IMG/VR virus record: IMGVR_UViG_3300020118_000445
Span: 1 to 38,204 of that record
Strand: one strand, 5' to 3'
Length of the DNA: 38,204 bases
Origin: a virus
Within the stretch, counting starts at the first letter, position 1. Each line of letters starts with the position of its first letter. The notes under the pieces are model-generated. The model made no database searches, had not been told where the DNA came from, and saw nothing but the letters and a program-made list of their open reading frames with translations. Position numbers and translations under genes: made by a program. Shown here piece after piece: positions 10,339-23,567 of the stretch.

Positions 10339-10761
10339 TCAAGTAATTTCATTGTTTGGCTTTCTTAAAATAAAACATGCAATATGCTGACCTATGCCTT
10401 TACCTGGTTTTCCGTCTTCAATCGCACACCATTTTACGTCTTTTAAATTTCTTACCAATGCCCCGGCTTCAAGTAATAAATGGATCCATTTGTAAATTGG
10501 AAATACGAAAACCACTTGTTTACCTTTTTTGTTTTCTTCGATTGCTTTTCTCACCCACGCAGTCGGTCCACTAAAGGGAGGATTTACATAGGTTGATTCT
10601 CCCCACTCAACAGTCAGTCCATCAAAACCTTCCGGTCTTGGATATGGGCATGCATCAAAATCAAAGTGAAATTCTTTGTTCAATGCTTTCATTAGTTCAG
10701 GAGGTGTTAACCAGTAATTTTTTCCATCTTTAGCAATACCAATGCCTTCTCTTGGACTCAT
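10339..10761 (-). CDS. DNA N6-adenine methyltransferase-like protein (phage Dam family)
   Basis: The protein has 140 residues from the ATG at 10761, which follows GGGAG and starts one base after the upstream TGA. The phage Dam-family layout is visible: WLTPPELMKAL near 17-27, DFDACP at 34-39 and catalytic YVNPPFSG at 58-65. An SAM-pocket strand follows (VVFVFP). NPPF is the adenine-N6 methylase motif IV. Homologues methylate phage DNA to evade host restriction or mark it for other processes. It is about the usual length for this short family. No cognate restriction enzyme is seen. Confidence 0.82.
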   Translation of the reverse strand: MSPREGIGIAKDGKNYWLTPPELMKALNKEFHFDFDACPYPRPEGFDGLTVEWGESTYVNPPFSGPTAWVRKAIEENKKGKQVVFVFPIYKWIHLLLEAGALVRNLKDVKWCAIEDGKPGKGIGQHIACFILRKPNNEIT

Positions 10762-10762
10762 C

Positions 10763-11023
10763 TCACTTACTCCCTTCTGCGATGAGTGCGCGGATTCGTG
10801 CAGCACAAATTAAAATATTCGTGACCACCAGTTCTTTTCCTTTTAGTTTTCGAAGCTCTTCTGCTCTGAAGTCACAAACTTTAGCTGCCTCTTCCAAAGC
10901 CGTGCTTCTCGCTTGATTGATGATTTGCTGGAAGCATTCTTCAATGGTCATCGTCTCACTCACTGCCACTCTAGACCAATAGAAATTCGCCCATTCCTTC
11001 GCGGTTTTAGGTTGGTTGGTCAT
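10763..11023 (-). CDS. Hypothetical early-region protein
   Basis: The protein has 86 residues and is helical. It contains ARSTALEEAAKVCD near 38-51 and a basic Leu-rich segment ending AARIRALI. These phrases recur in small phage and prophage proteins of unknown function (recalled, not searched). It abuts its upstream neighbour with no spare base and ends one base before the methylase start, so the three genes form a tight translational unit. Confidence 0.6.
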   Translation of the reverse strand: MTNQPKTAKEWANFYWSRVAVSETMTIEECFQQIINQARSTALEEAAKVCDFRAEELRKLKGKELVVTNILICAARIRALIAEGSK

Positions 11024-11293
11024 TCAATAATCTCCGTCATCTTCGTTCGGTAGCAATTCATTGACCTGACTCTCGAGAAGACCGAATTCATGTTTCAATA
11101 TCGTTCGTTTAACCTTCCTGGTCACTCCAGTCATGTTCACAATTCCATTGATCTCCTTCAATTTATCGTTTAATCCCTGCTGAATGACCTTCCAATCATC
11201 CGGATGAATAATTAAATTGTCCGGCTTTATTCTTACCGTCATCGCCTCCCTCTTCAACATGTCCAAGGAGTCCTTGAGCGATTTGGCGCTCAT
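11024..11293 (-). CDS. Hypothetical protein
   Basis: The protein has 89 residues and is alpha-rich, with alternating charged stretches and an acidic C-terminus (LLPNEDDGDY). There is no Cys, signal sequence or membrane segment. It overlaps the upstream gene by four bases and touches the next. The IIHPDDWKVI segment (28-37) is the most distinctive part. Function is unknown. Confidence 0.55.
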   Translation of the reverse strand: MSAKSLKDSLDMLKREAMTVRIKPDNLIIHPDDWKVIQQGLNDKLKEINGIVNMTGVTRKVKRTILKHEFGLLESQVNELLPNEDDGDY

Positions 11294-11711: not shown

Positions 11712-11849
11712 TTATACTCCCAACCCCAACCCCGACCCCGACCGCGATCGCGACCCCGACCACGACCCCGACCGCGACCACGACCACGACCACGACCGCG
11801 ACCACGACCACGACTTATCAAAACCTGTCAGGATCAATGCTTGGTTCAT
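11712..11849 (-). CDS. Ser-Trp/Arg/Gly dipeptide-repeat small ORF
   Basis: This is a 45-residue ORF whose ATG overlaps the upstream stop as ATGA, behind AAAGGG. After 12 ordinary residues it becomes 14 dipeptides of Ser followed by Trp, Arg or Gly, then LGLGV and a stop. The dipeptides are the direct reading of a 16-unit hexamer repeat. Coupling and the next gene's start six bases after its stop argue that it is translated. However, the hexamer lacks stops in several frames, so the ORF may be a by-product of the repeat. Confidence 0.4.
   Translation of the reverse strand: MNQALILTGFDKSWSWSRSWSWSWSRSGSWSGSRSRSGSGLGLGV
11719..11814. repeat. Degenerate 6-bp tandem repeat, 16 units
   Basis: Sixteen consecutive hexamers fit C-[CAG]-C-[AG]-A-[CT]. 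Most are CACGAC, CGCGAC or CCCGAC, with two CCCAAC at the left end. The tract is far richer in C and G than its surroundings. Units vary mainly at their second base, as expected for slippage followed by point change. Confidence 0.9.
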
Positions 11850-13050: not shown

Positions 13051-13728
13051 TTATAGTTCCTTTCTTGGTGCAGATTCCCTCAAGAGCTCAAGGAGCTTCT
13101 CGGATTGCGCGATCCTCCATTCGGATCTTTTAGAAGCAGAACCAGCATAAGCAGCAGCATAAGCAGCAGCATAAGCAGCATAAGCAGCAGTAGCATAAGT
13201 AGCATCAGCAGCAGTAGCAGCATTAGCAGCAGTAGCAGCAGTAGCAGCAGTAGCATAAGTAGCATCAGCAGCAGCAGCAGTCCATTGCTCTTTTGTTATA
13301 TCTTCGCCGTTTAATTTTTTAGAATAAAGATCAGCGACCTCCTGGATCGCTTTCCGTTGCCGGTCCGTCCTCGCGAACTGCAACACGCCATACTTTTCAT
13401 TAACCAGCAGCCAAACTGCAAACATTGGCCATACATTCGAGAGATCAACACCCACTGGGACAGCGCTCAAGAACCTCTCAGGCCACGTCATGGCGAGCCC
13501 GTTCGGCAGGCTTTCGAATATCCCGTCCTCAAGTCTAGCTAGGATCCTGGGGATGCCGAGTTTATCTTCATAGTCCGCGTGGTCACCAGAATGAACTGTG
13601 CACCCGACGGCGCAACCCTTTCCATTCTCCCAGTATTGTCCCTTGACGATTTCATCCGCTAGGGCATGAGCTTGGATACGAGCCAAATATTTTTCCTTGA
13701 TCTCGGGTTTACCGTGAAAAGACAGCAT
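13051..13728 (-). CDS. Phage protein with Ala/Tyr/Thr-rich repeat domain
   Basis: The protein has 225 residues. Residues 1-145 form a conserved-looking globular part (GKGCAVGCTVHSGDHADYE near 37-55 and WPERFLSAVPVG near 82-93) that I recall from many uncharacterised phage proteins. Residues about 149-200 are a low-complexity run of A-T-A-A, A-Y-A-A and A-D-A-T-Y units encoded by imperfect GCA/GCT trinucleotides. A charged helical end follows. The Ala-rich repeat varies in length between relatives of this family (recollection). Function is unknown. It ends three bases before the small membrane-protein gene. Confidence 0.7.
   Translation of the reverse strand: MLSFHGKPEIKEKYLARIQAHALADEIVKGQYWENGKGCAVGCTVHSGDHADYEDKLGIPRILARLEDGIFESLPNGLAMTWPERFLSAVPVGVDLSNVWPMFAVWLLVNEKYGVLQFARTDRQRKAIQEVADLYSKKLNGEDITKEQWTAAAADATYATAATAATAANAATAADATYATAAYAAYAAAYAAAYAGSASKRSEWRIAQSEKLLELLRESAPRKEL
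13143..13281. repeat. Imperfect trinucleotide (GCA-type) repeat within a gene
   Basis: The plus strand reads almost entirely as AGC, ATA and AGT triplets in groups, giving poly-Ala/Thr/Tyr in the coding strand and open frames on both strands. It lies in frame inside the gene at 13051-13728, so expansions and contractions would keep the frame. Confidence 0.85.
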
Positions 13729-15493: not shown

Positions 15494-15724
15494 ATGAAAA
15501 CTCAAGGCACGCCTAAAACCCTAATTGAAGCCATCGATCATGCATTTAACGAACTGGATGAGATGCGATTTGACGGCCCCTATAGCAGATGCCGAGATGA
15601 TTTAATGAAACAGTACATCAAAGATTTTCAAGCTCAAATCTTTGGAGCCTTCATGCTGAAAGCCACGGACTCAGAAGCTCAATTGCTTCGGGAACTTTGG
15701 GAACGGCTTTATTCTGCAGAATAA
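15494..15724 (+). CDS. Hypothetical protein co-transcribed with the small lipoprotein
   Basis: The protein has 76 residues from the ATG at 15494, which follows AGAGGT and begins two bases after the lipoprotein stop. An upstream in-frame start at 15476 would lie inside that gene. It is acidic and helical, with a Trp and Tyr near the end (LLRELWERLYSAE). No motif is recognised. It is followed by a hairpin and the non-coding array. Confidence 0.55.
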   Translation: MKTQGTPKTLIEAIDHAFNELDEMRFDGPYSRCRDDLMKQYIKDFQAQIFGAFMLKATDSEAQLLRELWERLYSAE

Positions 15725-15728
15725 AAAG

Positions 15729-15793
15729 ATCCCACTCGCATCCATACTTCCTACTATCCTCAAAAAGGAATTCGTTCTGAACAGGAGTGGGAT
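15729..15793 (+). terminator. Long hairpin after the rightward pair of genes
   Basis: ATCCCACTC at 15729-15737 pairs perfectly with GAGTGGGAT at 15785-15793. The 47-base loop contains a small TTCC/GGAA pair. It is followed by TTCTTAT, a weak uridine tract, so it may act as a terminator or a 3' end stabiliser. It separates the coding pair from the five-base array. Confidence 0.45.
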
Positions 15794-15813
15794 TTCTTAT
15801 GATAAGCTGCCAA

Positions 15814-16011
15814 ACAATACCGCGCAACACTGGACGACACTACACTAGACAGCACCATACGATACACAACTGTACCTTACTCACTTTACTTAACTCAACT
15901 TAACTCAACTTTACACCACAGTACTTGACAGAACGCGACCTTTCGCCTTACTACACTACATCACGCACAAATGGACTTTACAATACTGTATTATGCTTGA
16001 CGGTACGTCAC
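15814..16011. repeat. Five-base phased AC array (ACNNN; GTNNN on the other strand)
   Basis: The dinucleotide AC recurs every five bases while the three bases between vary. In phase one AC occurs at 15814, 15819 and at every fifth base from 15829 to 15879, with only 15824 missing. After a one-base contraction it occurs at every fifth base from 15883 to 15938, then at 15953, 15958 and 15963. A third phase holds 15975, 15980, 15985, 16000, 16005 and 16010. About 34 of 40 slots are exact. The plus strand is poor in G. No gene is visible. It fills the gap between convergent genes, and its right end touches the last codons of the gene at 16008-16595. No function is known to me. Confidence 0.85.
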
Positions 16012-16595
16012 TCATTCATTTCAGTGAATTCCACCACCGAAAATTGTCCAAAATATCCTGATTTCTGAACTCGAAAAGAACCAATGCCGGATCTTTTTCC
16101 TGCATCATTCAAAATATTGAGAGTCGTTTGTGGAGAGATTAAATCATCATCAATCGTGATTTCAAATTGAGCATTCCATCGATCAAATCTCGGACGACAA
16201 ACAGCTACAGCACCTTTCAGGTGATTCGTGGCTTTACGAATATCCACTTCGAATTTCTTCAAAGGGACTCCATCATCATCGATCAAGAGAGCAAACTCTT
16301 GAGAAGGTCTAAAGACTCCACCGGCAATGGCTTTGTAGCTTTTTCTTGAAGAATTGGTTTGTTTGTAATCTCCAGCCACATGAGCAAAAGCTCCAGAGAT
16401 ATATCCCATGGGAATATAAAAATCACCTTTCTCCGTCTTGTAGGCATAAGACTCAGCAATCTCTCTAGGAGTTAGTTCAATCTTATCTTTCTTTTTTTTC
16501 CCTTTTGTCCCTAAGAGATTAAAAAGTTCCTCTTCTCTCATTCTGTGATGCATCAAAGGAGTGTTTCCTTTGATCTTGACTTGAATTCGTTTCAT
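16008..16595 (-). CDS. Phage protein of unknown function next to the pentamer array
   Basis: The protein has 195 residues. It starts IQVKIKGNTPLMHHRM. A Lys-rich insert lies near 30-40, then ELTPREIAESYAY (40-52). The end has a glycine-containing loop, GKRSGIGSFRVQKSGYFGQF, near 164-183, then a beta strand. A KGNTPLLMH-type start and the G-x-G-x-F-R ending recur in uncharacterised phage proteins (recollection). The beta-rich layout with a late glycine loop loosely recalls RAMP/Cas7-like folds, but I cannot show homology. It is in one operon with the nuclease upstream (26-base gap, AAAGGATGG site). Its stop lies at the edge of the array, so the mRNA 3' end would carry GUNNN repeats. Confidence 0.65.
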   Translation of the reverse strand: MKRIQVKIKGNTPLMHHRMREEELFNLLGTKGKKKKDKIELTPREIAESYAYKTEKGDFYIPMGYISGAFAHVAGDYKQTNSSRKSYKAIAGGVFRPSQEFALLIDDDGVPLKKFEVDIRKATNHLKGAVAVCRPRFDRWNAQFEITIDDDLISPQTTLNILNDAGKRSGIGSFRVQKSGYFGQFSVVEFTEMNE

Positions 16596-19785: not shown

Positions 19786-20781
19786 ATGTCAAAAAAAGTT
19801 CTCATTACAGGCTCAGCAGGATTTGTCGGTCATCATTTTGTGGATTACTTCTTAGAAAAAACAGATTGGGACATCGTTGGACTCGATTCCTTCAAACACC
19901 GGGGCGATTCCATGCGAGTTCAAACTCACGAACGCTATCAGATCTATACCTGCGATTTGACGACTCCCATCTCCTATCGGCTCGCCTCTCAAATCGGAGA
20001 AATCGATTATTTGCTTTCTGTAGCCAGTGAATCCCATGTCGATCGATCCATCACCGATCCCGTGCCTTTTGTGAAAAACAATGTCGATTTGATTTTGAAC
20101 GTCTTGGAATACGCTCGCGTCGTGAAGCCCAAAGTCTTTTTACAAATCTCAACCGATGAAGTCTATGGCGCAGCTCCGGAAGGCATCGATCATCAGGAAT
20201 GGTCCAGTATTCTTCCCTCCAATCCCTACTCGGCTTCTAAAGCCGCTCAAGAAGCCATTGCGATTTCTTATTGGCGTACCTTTGGAGTTCCTCTCATTCT
20301 CACCAACACCATGAACATGCTGGGTAAAAGGCAAGATCCAGAAAAGTATCTCCCCATGCTCATTCATCGCATCGCTCATGACCTGAAAGTCATCGTGCAT
20401 GGAACCCCAGAATACATCGGAAAACGCCATTATTTGGATTGCACGAATCTAGCCGACGCCGTTCATTTCTTGATCACAAAAACCACTCCCACTCTCTACC
20501 ACGATGATCCAAAAAAGATCATTCTACCGGATCGATACAACATTGTGGGAGATGTTGAATTGGATAATCTGCAATTGGCTGAAGCCGTCGCAGCCATTCT
20601 TCAAAAAAATCTCAATGTGGAATTTTTGGATTTTCATCAAGCTAGGCCTGGACATGACCGCAGATATTCGTTAGATGGGTCTAAAATAAAAAACTTAGGC
20701 TGGAGCGCTCCGATTTCACTGGAGCAAACCTTGAATGAAATCATTGAGTACACGTTGAAAAATCCCATTTGGTTGAAATAA
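19786..20781 (+). CDS. NAD-dependent sugar dehydratase (RmlB-like SDR)
   Basis: The protein has 331 residues. It has a Rossmann GSAGFVG at 9-15, a SESHVDRSI stretch at 81-89 typical of nucleotide-sugar 4,6-dehydratases, TDEVYG at 123-128 and catalytic YSASK at 148-152. RPGHDRRYSLD follows in the C-terminal part. It most likely converts dTDP-glucose (or a related NDP-sugar) to the 4-keto-6-deoxy sugar. It is about 20 residues shorter than RmlB of E. coli but has all landmark motifs. It starts the rightward sugar module, divergent from the spike gene with a 74-base gap, and is followed three bases later by the oxygenase gene. Confidence 0.85.
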   Translation: MSKKVLITGSAGFVGHHFVDYFLEKTDWDIVGLDSFKHRGDSMRVQTHERYQIYTCDLTTPISYRLASQIGEIDYLLSVASESHVDRSITDPVPFVKNNVDLILNVLEYARVVKPKVFLQISTDEVYGAAPEGIDHQEWSSILPSNPYSASKAAQEAIAISYWRTFGVPLILTNTMNMLGKRQDPEKYLPMLIHRIAHDLKVIVHGTPEYIGKRHYLDCTNLADAVHFLITKTTPTLYHDDPKKIILPDRYNIVGDVELDNLQLAEAVAAILQKNLNVEFLDFHQARPGHDRRYSLDGSKIKNLGWSAPISLEQTLNEIIEYTLKNPIWLK

Positions 20782-20784
20782 TCC

Positions 20785-21549
20785 ATGATCAATACAGAAA
20801 AAAAACTAGAGATCTTTCAGAACCTGAATGAGTACAAAAAAAAATATCAAGAAGCAAAACCTTTTTCTCATCTGGTGATTGATGAATATTTTGATCATCA
20901 ATACTTGTTGAATATCGAGCGAGAATTCCCTAAGCCAGGAACTACCTGGTGGAAGTATCACAATCCTTTTGAAAAGAAGTTTGCCTTTGATCAATTCGAA
21001 TGGATGCCTGCTTTGATTCAAGACTTCATCATGCAGCTTCAAAGCTTTCCCTTCATTCATTTCTTAGAGCAAGTCACTGGTATCGATGGACTTCTGCCGG
21101 ATCCCAAGCTCAACGGAGGAGGCTTGCATCAAATCGTGCGAGGCGGGAAACTCGATATCCATGCCGATTACAACTATCATCCCCTAACAAAACTTGATCG
21201 AAGATTGAATGTCCTCATTTATTTAAATCAAGACTGGCTGCCTTCCTGGGCAGGCGCTTTGGAGTTTTGGGATCAAAAAATGACTCAGTGTCAAAAAGAA
21301 ATTCTGCCTCTTTTCAATCGCCTGGTGATTTTTTCAACGACCGACATTTCTTTTCATGGGCATCCCGAGCCTCTTTTATGCCCAGAGGATCGAACCAGAA
21401 AATCCATTGCGCTTTATTATTACACCAATGGCCGCCCCGAGCATGAAAGATCAGCGCCTCACTCCACTCTTTATCAAAAGCGCCCTCAAGATGAAGAGAG
21501 TCCTGAAATGGCGGATCTCAGACAGAAGCGCGCGAAAGGGCGGATATGA
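20785..21549 (+). CDS. 2-oxoglutarate/Fe(II)-dependent oxygenase
   Basis: The protein has 254 residues. The iron-binding facial triad is visible: IHAD with H126 and D128, and a second histidine in SFHGHPEP (H191 or H193). R205 in the RKSIALYYYT strand is the likely 2-oxoglutarate ligand. The arrangement fits the prolyl-4-hydroxylase-like superfamily seen in polysaccharide clusters, where such enzymes hydroxylate sugars or peptides. The C-terminal 35 residues are highly charged. The stop overlaps the methyltransferase start by four bases. The substrate is unknown but its neighbours point to a sugar or glycan. Confidence 0.8.
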   Translation: MINTEKKLEIFQNLNEYKKKYQEAKPFSHLVIDEYFDHQYLLNIEREFPKPGTTWWKYHNPFEKKFAFDQFEWMPALIQDFIMQLQSFPFIHFLEQVTGIDGLLPDPKLNGGGLHQIVRGGKLDIHADYNYHPLTKLDRRLNVLIYLNQDWLPSWAGALEFWDQKMTQCQKEILPLFNRLVIFSTTDISFHGHPEPLLCPEDRTRKSIALYYYTNGRPEHERSAPHSTLYQKRPQDEESPEMADLRQKRAKGRI

Positions 21550-22226
21550 ATCGAGAAGAAATCGCGAGGCTTTACATCCAAGGCAAAGGCATTGAAATCG
21601 GAGCGCATCATCATCCCTTTCCCGTCATGCCCTGGCAATTCAAGGTGACTTACATCGATAAATTCCCAAAAGATGTTTTAGTGCCGATGTTCCCCGAGAT
21701 CCCAGCGTCTCAAGTCATTGAACCTCAGATCGTCACTAACGGAATGACTTTAGACGGGATCGCGTCTGAATCCCAATATTTTGTGATTGCTTCTCACGTC
21801 ATTGAACACATGGAAAGCGCTTTGGTAGCGATTGAGAATCATTTGAGAGTGACGAAGCCCGGTGGAATTATTTTTTACGCCATTCCTGATTTCACGAATC
21901 CTTTTGATAAAAAAAGAGCCATCACCTCTTATGCTCACCACGAAACGGATTATCATCAGTACACGTATCAACCATTGGATTTCCAAGCCAATCTTCAGCG
22001 GCATTATTTAGAGTATCTCTCCGTTGTGGATCAAATCACGGGAGAAAGAGCCATTCAGATCGCTGATGAGTACATGCAAAAAAACCGGGATATTCATTTC
22101 CATGTCTTTAATCAGGATGAGATTTTAAGAATTTTCACTCGATTCAAAAAGCTTTTTTATACCGTGGAATTCTATGAATACTTGCCCAAACATTTTGAAC
22201 ACTTTGTGGTGATCAGAAAAAAATGA
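21546..22226 (+). CDS. SAM-dependent methyltransferase (class I)
   Basis: The protein has 226 residues. The SAM-binding motif I is GKGIEIGA (13-20). The post-I region contains YIDKF, and FVIASHVIEHM (about 78-88) and LRVTKPGGIIFYAIPD (about 100-115) are the methyltransferase motifs that position the acceptor. It is typical of the Methyltransf_11-like family. It overlaps both neighbours by four bases, so it is translationally coupled in the sugar module and probably modifies a sugar or lipid-linked intermediate. Confidence 0.85.
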   Translation: MNREEIARLYIQGKGIEIGAHHHPFPVMPWQFKVTYIDKFPKDVLVPMFPEIPASQVIEPQIVTNGMTLDGIASESQYFVIASHVIEHMESALVAIENHLRVTKPGGIIFYAIPDFTNPFDKKRAITSYAHHETDYHQYTYQPLDFQANLQRHYLEYLSVVDQITGERAIQIADEYMQKNRDIHFHVFNQDEILRIFTRFKKLFYTVEFYEYLPKHFEHFVVIRKK

Positions 22227-22450
22227 ATGACACTGAACCTCAAGATATTCTGAGACTGCATGCTGATTTTGATCCCACCACGGTGATTTGCTTGAGCCAC
22301 AAAAAAGGAGAGTTCATGGTGGATTTTTCTACTCCTTGTGAGCTTCATACTCTCACTTTGCTTTCAAAGATGTTAGAAACCGAAATCATTCATCTCACTC
22401 AAATCATGATGGCAGAAAGAAGAAACGATGATAAAAATCCTCCTCATTAG
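22223..22450 (+). CDS. Small hypothetical protein in the sugar module
   Basis: The protein has 75 residues, acidic with His and Met clusters. It overlaps the methyltransferase by four bases and the glycosyltransferase by 23 bases in another frame. No motif is recognised. It may exist mainly to couple translation of the two enzymes. Confidence 0.45.
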   Translation: MNDTEPQDILRLHADFDPTTVICLSHKKGEFMVDFSTPCELHTLTLLSKMLETEIIHLTQIMMAERRNDDKNPPH

Positions 22451-23567
22451 CCCTTACCCCAGAGATGCTAACTCCATGTGGAGAAGTGTCGGTCCCATGA
22501 AGTATCTGGCCAAGAATTCCAATGGGAAATATCAAATCAAGGTGCATCCCATCGGCCAAGACATTGCTTGGGATGAGATGGCCGATGTCGATCTCGTCTT
22601 TCTTCATCGCCCCTGCAGGCAAGATGATCTCACGATTCTTAAGATCGCACGCAATCTCAATATCCCGGTCTGGGTGGAATACGATGATTGGCTTTTTGAT
22701 TTACCTTCTTGGAATCCACACAAAGCCTCTTATGACAATCCAGGATTGCAATCCGTCATGGCGAGCTGTGTGGCTTGCGCCGATGTGATCTCGGTCACCA
22801 CGAGCGCTCTTTATGAAAAATTCAGAATCATCAATCCCAACGTCGTCATCGTTCCCAATGCCTACAGGTCTGATCTATTCCCTTACCGGAAAAAAGAAAC
22901 GCCTAAACGCCAACGCGCATTTTTTTGGCGAGGCTCCAATACTCATGAAGGTGATATCCATTCCGTCTTAGACGGCATCAAACAACTCCCAGCTCCCACC
23001 TACTACCTGGGATCCCTCCCCTGGAATATCCAAGCGCAACTCAAGCAAGGGCAGGCCTTCATCGTGGGTCATCAAGATCCGTTTATCTACATGCGTTATA
23101 TTTACAATCAAGCCTATCAGGTCATGATCAATCCTTTGATTGATTGTTTTTTCAATAGAGTGAAATCCAATATCGCCTACATCGAAGCCATGCATGCAGG
23201 AGCGCTTTGCGTGGCTCCTGACATGCCGGAATGGAGAAGGCCAGGAGTGATTACTTACATTCCTCATCGATCCGATGATTTCTTAAGAGCCTGCACTCAA
23301 GCCATTGAAATGGATGAGGCGACTTTCCAAGATCAAGTCGAAGATGGCTTTGCCGATATGAAATCCATGTATGATATCACGCATATCAATCAAATCAGGC
23401 TTTCAATGATTGAGGCCATGCTGGACAAAGAATTCAAACGAAATGAAAGAGATCCTTGGGATCAGCTCACGGCTTTATGGGCCATCAGCCATTTGAAAGG
23501 AAAACCTCTAGCTCCGGTCAATGAACAAACCTTGCAAGAAAAACATCTTACGGTAGAATCTACTTAA
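22428..23567 (+). CDS. Glycosyltransferase, GT-B fold (GT4-like)
   Basis: The protein has 379 residues and a GT-B layout. The N-terminal Rossmann half (ILLISPYP start, DLVFLHRP near 54-61, WVEYDDW near 82-88) is followed by a linker with VVIVPNAYR near 138-146. The C-terminal half carries FFWRGSNTHEGD near 164-175 and a donor-site region NIAYIEAMHAGALCVAP near 247-263. The EAMHAG motif is the usual nucleotide-sugar-binding segment. It would transfer an activated sugar, perhaps the one made by the dehydratase. It starts within the previous gene and ends the sugar module. Confidence 0.8.
   Translation: MIKILLISPYPRDANSMWRSVGPMKYLAKNSNGKYQIKVHPIGQDIAWDEMADVDLVFLHRPCRQDDLTILKIARNLNIPVWVEYDDWLFDLPSWNPHKASYDNPGLQSVMASCVACADVISVTTSALYEKFRIINPNVVIVPNAYRSDLFPYRKKETPKRQRAFFWRGSNTHEGDIHSVLDGIKQLPAPTYYLGSLPWNIQAQLKQGQAFIVGHQDPFIYMRYIYNQAYQVMINPLIDCFFNRVKSNIAYIEAMHAGALCVAPDMPEWRRPGVITYIPHRSDDFLRACTQAIEMDEATFQDQVEDGFADMKSMYDITHINQIRLSMIEAMLDKEFKRNERDPWDQLTALWAISHLKGKPLAPVNEQTLQEKHLTVEST

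What the first reader, a model, noticed from the sequence alone, without database searches (positions are those of the whole stretch)
15814..16011. Non-coding array with AC every five bases (ACNNN / GTNNN)
Over about 198 bases, AC stands at a fixed five-base pitch while the other three bases vary freely. There are 13 of 14 slots, then 12 in a row after a one-base slip, then further groups. It is neither an ordinary tandem repeat, since the units share only two bases, nor coding. A pitch without unit identity suggests selection for contact with a multimeric protein that reads every fifth nucleotide of single-stranded DNA, duplex DNA or RNA. A filament of an annealing protein, or the adjacent unknown protein, are possible readers. 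The periods resemble the spaced triplets bound by ring proteins such as TRAP, but the motif differs. I know of no described element like this.
Basis: seen in the sequence. Interest (0 to 1): 0.9.

Follow-up and report, generated by a model that had tools for sequence, protein, structure and literature searches.

The report
Phage guide-RNA array of VIPR type
The odd stretch with AC at every fifth base is most likely the guide-RNA array of a phage-borne VIPR system, a recently described relative of CRISPR in which a small protein uses gapped guide RNAs to find DNA, here with a looser repeat motif than the main published one.

Summary
AC at five-base pitch (GU-NNN in minus-strand RNA) gives 30 lag-5 pairs in 211 bp; 20,000 dinucleotide shuffles average 8.2 and never exceed 19. 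The array begins at the stop codon of the minus-strand 195-residue gene. A phage with a 63% identical protein carries a longer GTNNN array, with different NNN, at the same place. A blind scan of viral contigs for (ACNNN)10 gave 120 loci: 55 of 82 with variable NNN encode a homologue, usually beside the array; 0 of 38 plain tandem repeats do. The protein (phrog_4652) is predicted to have a Csm3/Cas7 RAMP fold (pLDDT 95), and its family matches PDB 36pp, 'SUSP1 Vipr protein'. So this is a VIPR locus (PMC13142463, April 2026): a RAMP protein plus vrRNAs of pentanucleotide repeats whose variable bases guide DNA recognition. The difference here is that the published GGY/NN unit is relaxed to GU-NNN, shared by a clade of four. 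Transcription, binding and target reading are inferred from published relatives; target searches found nothing convincing.

The parts
15814..16011 (-). Pentanucleotide array, GU-NNN in the sense of the minus strand (AC-NNN on +): the presumed vrRNA (guide RNA) region
   Evidence: same feature beside homologous genes
15885..15939 (-). Guide run C: GTCGC GTTCT GTCAA GTACT GTGGT GTAAA GTTGA GTTAA GTTGA GTTAA GTAAA, followed by a 4-base unit GTGA (vrRNA boundaries inferred, not shown)
15811..15880 (-). Guide run D: GTAAG GTACA GTTGT GTATC GTATG GTGCT GTCTA GTGTA GTGTC GTCCA GTGTT GCGCG GTATT GTTTG (boundaries inferred)
15940..16011 (-). Less regular 5' part of the array (GTGAC GTACC GTCAA GCATA ... 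GTATT GTAAA, then GTGAT GTAGT GTAGT ...), starting at the stop codon of the protein gene
16008..16595 (-). Vipr-like protein gene, 195 aa, phrog_4652, predicted RAMP (Csm3/Cas7) fold with C-terminal glycine-rich loop
16622..16984 (-). DUF559 gene, 120 aa, directly upstream on the same strand; candidate accessory (vap) gene, not shown to belong
   Evidence: PF04480, E 1.7e-10; no homologue in the other pattern loci
15723..15795 (-). Long inverted repeat followed by a U-run, AAAUCCCACUC ... GAGUGGGAUCUUUUU: possible terminator at the 3' end of the array transcript
   Evidence: -29 kcal/mol, z -1.8, 11 of 200 shuffles as good: weak; not found by the short-loop terminator scan

Best explanation
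The array encodes the guide RNAs (vrRNAs) of a VIPR system carried by this phage. Shown here: the array is real, lies directly 3' of the 195-residue gene on that gene's strand, and keeps its pitch with different NNN beside the 63% identical homologue; the protein belongs to the Vipr family and is predicted to have the Cas7/Csm3 RAMP fold; homologues of it accompany variable five-base arrays across viral contigs. Inferred: the array is transcribed as GU-NNN RNA, probably by read-through from the gene; about one Vipr subunit sits on each five-base unit and grips the fixed GU; the variable bases face outward and pair with DNA. In the published system two variable bases pair and one target base is skipped, so that each five-base unit reads three bases of target. 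The bound complex would silence genes of competing phages, satellites or prophages. In this clade the first G of the published GGY motif is not kept, so the unit is GU-NNN.
For: Statistics. Same array at the same place beside the 63% homologue. Blind pattern scan: 55 of 82 loci with variable units hold a homologue against 0 of 38 with plain tandem repeats, Fisher p = 8e-14, median array-to-gene gap 27 bases, and no homologue in 104 other viral loci. Family: phrog_4652 in 18 of 18 members. Profile of 52 members against PDB sequences: 36pp 'SUSP1 Vipr protein', E = 2.3e-27; window protein alone E = 6.3e-5. AlphaFold2 pLDDT 95.1, pTM 0.88; Foldseek best matches are Csm3 and type VII CRISPR RAMPs, E about 2e-7. 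Positive control: the homologue in felixounavirus VpaE1 is flanked by several NNGGT arrays. Published mechanism: PMC13142463. In classes with three fixed bases, TA is depleted exactly at the two variable positions, as expected if they copy coding sequence.
Against: No convincing DNA target of the window's two guide runs was found in 2.9 million viral contigs, nor of run D in 84,980 genomes; the few exact 9-unit matches do not extend beyond the pattern. The strict GGY motif is not met: the base before GU is G in only 4 of 25 units. No conserved structured 3' tail was recognised. Transcription and protein binding were not tested.
Confidence: 0.9

Rival explanations
1. The array is a landing strip in RNA for the Vipr-like protein alone, for example an autoregulatory 3' UTR that titrates the protein or stabilises its own mRNA, and the variable bases carry no guide information.
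For: The array starts at the stop codon of the gene on the same strand; no target found; arrays lie next to the gene in many loci.
Against: Related systems use such RNAs as guides, with gene silencing and phage defence shown (PMC13142463). L002 carries about 90 units, much for a simple regulator. The variable positions are TA-depleted in the classes with enough units.
Confidence: 0.07
2. A DNA site (replication origin, packaging or partition site) bound as duplex or single-stranded DNA by the RecT-like protein or another filament.
For: A RecT-like gene lies 1.2 kb away, and L002 also has a RecT gene.
Against: The window's RecT found a relative in only 1 of the other loci with arrays (an insensitive search), whereas the RAMP-fold protein accompanies them in most. 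A strict five-base pitch does not keep phase with the 10.5-bp helix over 200 bp (established knowledge).
Confidence: 0.02
3. A decayed five-base tandem repeat (microsatellite) with chance retention of AC.
For: A short stretch, 15888-15911, repeats ACTTAACTCA.
Against: Decay would erode AC as fast as NNN. AC is kept in 25 of 26 slots of the two long runs while NNN is near random. Plain tandem repeats in the same scan never accompany the protein.
Confidence: 0.01

Closest known systems
VIPR systems (Viral Interference Programmable Repeat), PMC13142463; Escherichia phage SUSP1 Vipr, PDB 36pp
   Same: Small phage-encoded RAMP protein of the same family; intergenic array of pentanucleotide units beside the gene and on its strand; fixed G-pyrimidine motif alternating with hypervariable bases; runs of 11 and 14 units, against 9-16 reported.
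   Different: Unit is GU-NNN, not GGY-NN: the first G is not kept. No vrRNA tail, target or expression shown here. A DUF559 gene lies upstream, whose part in the system is unknown. The paper says that some types use 'a related consensus' (its fig. S17), which could not be read here.
Class 1 CRISPR effector subunits (Csm3/Cas7, type III and type VII)
   Same: Predicted fold of the protein; RAMP subunits that line up along a guide RNA at fixed pitch.
   Different: No CRISPR repeats and spacers, no cas operon; pitch of 5, not 6; guide information interrupted in every unit.
TRAP binding sites in trp leader RNA (from own knowledge)
   Same: Spaced short motifs at about five-base pitch read by a multimeric protein.
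   Different: Motif GAG/UAG instead of GU; ring of 11 subunits; regulates trp genes; no RAMP protein.

Membership tests
VIPR | Vipr protein: a compact RAMP homologue of the family of SUSP1 Vipr | tested here: met
   Profile vs PDB 36pp E 2.3e-27; phrog_4652 in all 18 members scanned; RAMP fold by AlphaFold2 and Foldseek
VIPR | Array of pentanucleotide units, fixed motif alternating with hypervariable bases, beside the vipr gene | tested here: met
   association
VIPR, GGY types such as type II | Strict GGY/NN consensus | tested here: not met
   GU kept, but the preceding base is G in 4 of 25 units of the window and 20 of 153 in the clade. The paper allows 'a related consensus' for some types, so this excludes the GGY types, not VIPR as such.
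VIPR | 9-16 repeats per vrRNA | tested here: inconclusive
   Runs of 11 and 14 units, but vrRNA ends are not known
VIPR | Invariable structured 3' tail of each vrRNA | tested here: inconclusive
   None recognised in the window; no Rfam match; L002 shows a recurrent GRAATT between runs, several times 49 bases apart
VIPR | Variable NN match DNA targets with a one-base skip | tested here: inconclusive
   Scans of viral contigs and genomes gave only hits that do not extend or are within chance
VIPR | vrRNA is transcribed and co-purifies with Vipr | not testable with these tools
   needs small-RNA sequencing and pull-down
VIPR | Accessory vap gene for DNA binding or cleavage (typical, not universal) | tested here: inconclusive
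   DUF559 gene upstream, without homologue in L002 or the other pattern loci
CRISPR-Cas | Array of identical repeats separated by unique spacers | tested here: not met
   Units share two bases only
TRAP site | GAG/UAG triplets at 4-6 base pitch | tested here: not met
   The fixed dinucleotide is AC (GU on the other strand); AG and CT show no comparable lag-5 signal

The most novel reading that the evidence does not exclude
In the GU-NNN clade the loss of the fixed first G frees a third base per unit, so that the guide could pair with DNA in complete triplets without the published one-base skip: a different reading code within VIPR. Weak hint: TA is somewhat depleted in all three adjacent pairs of variable positions. 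Against: run C read as triplets contains TGA TAA TGA TAA, and the freed position has its own base composition, poor in G, which suggests that the protein still contacts it.
Probability: 0.1. Interest if true: 0.75.

Novelty: new variant of a known kind. Interest (0 to 1): 0.55.

Why it matters
VIPR was first reported in April 2026 from 664 systems and is proposed there as a forerunner of CRISPR. This locus came to light from the raw sequence pattern alone, and the pattern in turn found dozens of further loci in viral contigs. The repeat motif is more varied than GGY: besides GGU-NN there are CGU-NN, UGU-NN, GUC-NN, GUU-NN, GUG-NN and GU-NNN classes. If the protein recognises a different motif in each, these are natural orthogonal guide codes, and the GU-NNN clade asks directly whether the skipped base is a necessity or a consequence of the fixed G.

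Tried and rejected
Targets of the guides. Local search in 1.18 Mb of held sequence with target periods of 2, 3 and 4 gave hits at chance level that did not extend. Viral-contig scans with nine-unit patterns for runs C and D gave 2 contigs each, with no extension. For a 26-unit GU-NNN guide of L017 an eight-unit scan gave 16 contigs, none extending; a second pattern was mistyped by one base and repeated correctly with 9 contigs, none extending. A nine-unit guide of L002 hit L218 with 8 of 12 further bases matching, but the skipped base falls on codon position 1, on the other strand of the gene, and with some twenty hits inspected this is within chance. The genome scan for run D gave 4 hits, none extending. 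Targets in the window itself or in L002: no better than shuffled unit order. Hammerhead or other Rfam RNAs: none at gathering score. A stable fold of the array RNA: none, z -0.6. DUF559 as a conserved partner: not supported. RecT as reader: not supported. The paper's supplement, with its types and consensus motifs, could not be opened.

Full report
Observation. The array is as described. AC is at 15814-15879 in 13 of 14 slots and at 15883-15938 in 12 of 12, with shorter groups to 16010. There are 30 lag-5 pairs against 8.2 (sd 2.45, maximum 19) in 20,000 dinucleotide-preserving shuffles; peaks continue at lags 10, 15, 20, 25 and 30. No other part of the window has a comparable AC signal.

Strand and surroundings. 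On the minus strand the unit reads GTNNN. The first unit overlaps the stop codon of the 195-aa gene 16008-16595 on that strand, and a long inverted repeat with a run of T follows the last unit (the terminator is weakly supported). A DUF559 gene lies just upstream of the 195-aa gene on the same strand. No promoter-like site was found by a simple scan.

A relative keeps pitch and place. The only close homologue found in viral contigs, L002 (63% identity), has roughly 90 GTNNN units in about 850 bases directly 3' of the homologous gene, on the same strand, with different NNN and a terminator-like hairpin after it.

A blind search ties array to protein. Sorting them by how alike successive units are leaves 82 loci with variable units and 38 plain tandem repeats. 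A profile of the 195-aa protein finds a homologue in 55 of the 82 and in none of the 38 (Fisher p = 8e-14); the median gap between array and gene is 27 bases; 104 viral loci fetched for other reasons have none. Some of the 27 without homologue are at contig ends or may have more distant proteins.

What the protein is. All 18 members scanned match phrog_4652, unknown function, and no Pfam family convincingly. AlphaFold2 with 52 homologues gives pLDDT 95 and pTM 0.88. Foldseek against PDB structures up to early April 2026 returns Csm3 and type VII CRISPR RAMP subunits at E about 2e-7. The C-terminal GIGSFRVQKSGYFGQF resembles the glycine-rich loop of RAMPs (sequence and established knowledge). 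A profile search of PDB sequences of 2026 gives 36pp, 'SUSP1 Vipr protein', at E = 2.3e-27.

The known system. PMC13142463 (bioRxiv, April 2026) reports VIPR: a small phage RAMP protein and vrRNAs of 9-16 pentanucleotide repeats, fixed GGY alternating with hypervariable NN. The NN pair with double-stranded DNA with one target base skipped per unit. The complex silences genes and blocks phage, and natural guides target competing phages, satellites and prophages. The present locus fits in protein family, layout, pitch and variability. As a positive control, the felixounavirus VpaE1, found through a homologue, shows several NNGGT arrays around its gene.

How this one differs. Across loci with both parts, the unit falls into classes: GGU-NN (17 loci), GUC-NN (13), GUG-NN (10), GUU-NN (6), GU-NNN (5), UGU-NN (2), CGU-NN (1). 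The window, L002, L017 and L056 share GU-NNN and form a clade (support 94/96); L018 is GU-NNN elsewhere in the tree, and Listonella phage phiHSIC seems to have GC-NNN. In the four-member clade the base before GU is G in 20 of 153 units, and its composition differs from the other two variable positions (p = 0.013). So it is not the fixed G of the main type, but may not be wholly free either.

Reading code. In classes with three fixed bases, TA is depleted at precisely the two remaining positions (p <= 0.005 in each of the four larger classes), in line with copying of coding sequence at codon positions 1 and 2. For GU-NNN the test has too few units to choose a register. Under the published rule run D would read AAN ACN TGN ATN ATN GCN CTN GTN GTN CCN GTN GCN ATN and run C CGN TCN CAN ACN GGN AAN TGN TAN TGN TAN AAN. 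No match of either extended beyond the pattern in viral contigs, and none of run D in genomes. The target is therefore unknown, which is not surprising for a phage whose host is unknown.

Verdict. A VIPR locus of a variant repeat type. Shown: array, protein family, fold prediction, association, clade. Inferred from published relatives: transcription, binding, pairing, silencing of rivals. Not settled: vrRNA ends, tail, targets, whether DUF559 takes part, and whether the third base is read. Whether the GU-NNN motif is among the 'related consensus' motifs of the paper's fig. S17 could not be checked; if it is, the finding is a new member and not a new variant.

Noticed in passing
L026, L030, L065, L068, L083, L085, L089, L098, L108, L120: In all ten GUG-NN loci, and in about half of the GUC-NN loci, the GU strand of the array is antisense to the vipr-like gene, and arrays may lie on both sides of it. 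Either the vrRNA is made from the other strand or the sense motif is CAC/GAC-NN.
   Followed up: partly
L014 (7962, 10843-11124), L034, L052, L082, L092, L112: Arrays with a clear VIPR-like unit consensus but no homologue of the protein in the held stretch: contig ends, distant proteins, or orphan guides as reported for satellites.
   Followed up: no
L002 6687-7410: A GRAATT motif recurs between runs of units, several times exactly 49 bases apart; it fits an RNase E type site (RN/WUU, from memory) and could be where vrRNAs are cut apart.
   Followed up: partly
L025 2218-3400: A row of GGU-NN runs, most followed by an almost constant AAGGAATGGTTTAATGAATTTAAT, a candidate vrRNA tail in a GGU class.
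   Followed up: no
L233 3614-3895 (Listonella phage phiHSIC): A GC-NNN array lies inside annotated ORF21, on the strand opposite to it, beside the vipr homologue ORF22; ORF21 may not be a gene.
   Followed up: partly
window 11729-11814 and 13135-13280: Tandem repeats of 6 and 9/24 bases (ACCGCG/ACCACG; AGCAGCAGC); the second lies in a 225-aa minus-strand ORF with an Ala-Tyr-Thr-rich stretch.
   Followed up: no
window 10339-10806: Dam-type adenine methyltransferase gene (PF05869).
   Followed up: no
window 19786-23567: Sugar-nucleotide epimerase-like, methyltransferase-like and glycosyltransferase-like proteins upstream of the terminase (read from translations only).
   Followed up: no
L002 2475-2924: The related phage carries a Tad6 family protein, a Thoeris inhibitor (PF25188, E 2e-46).
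   Followed up: no
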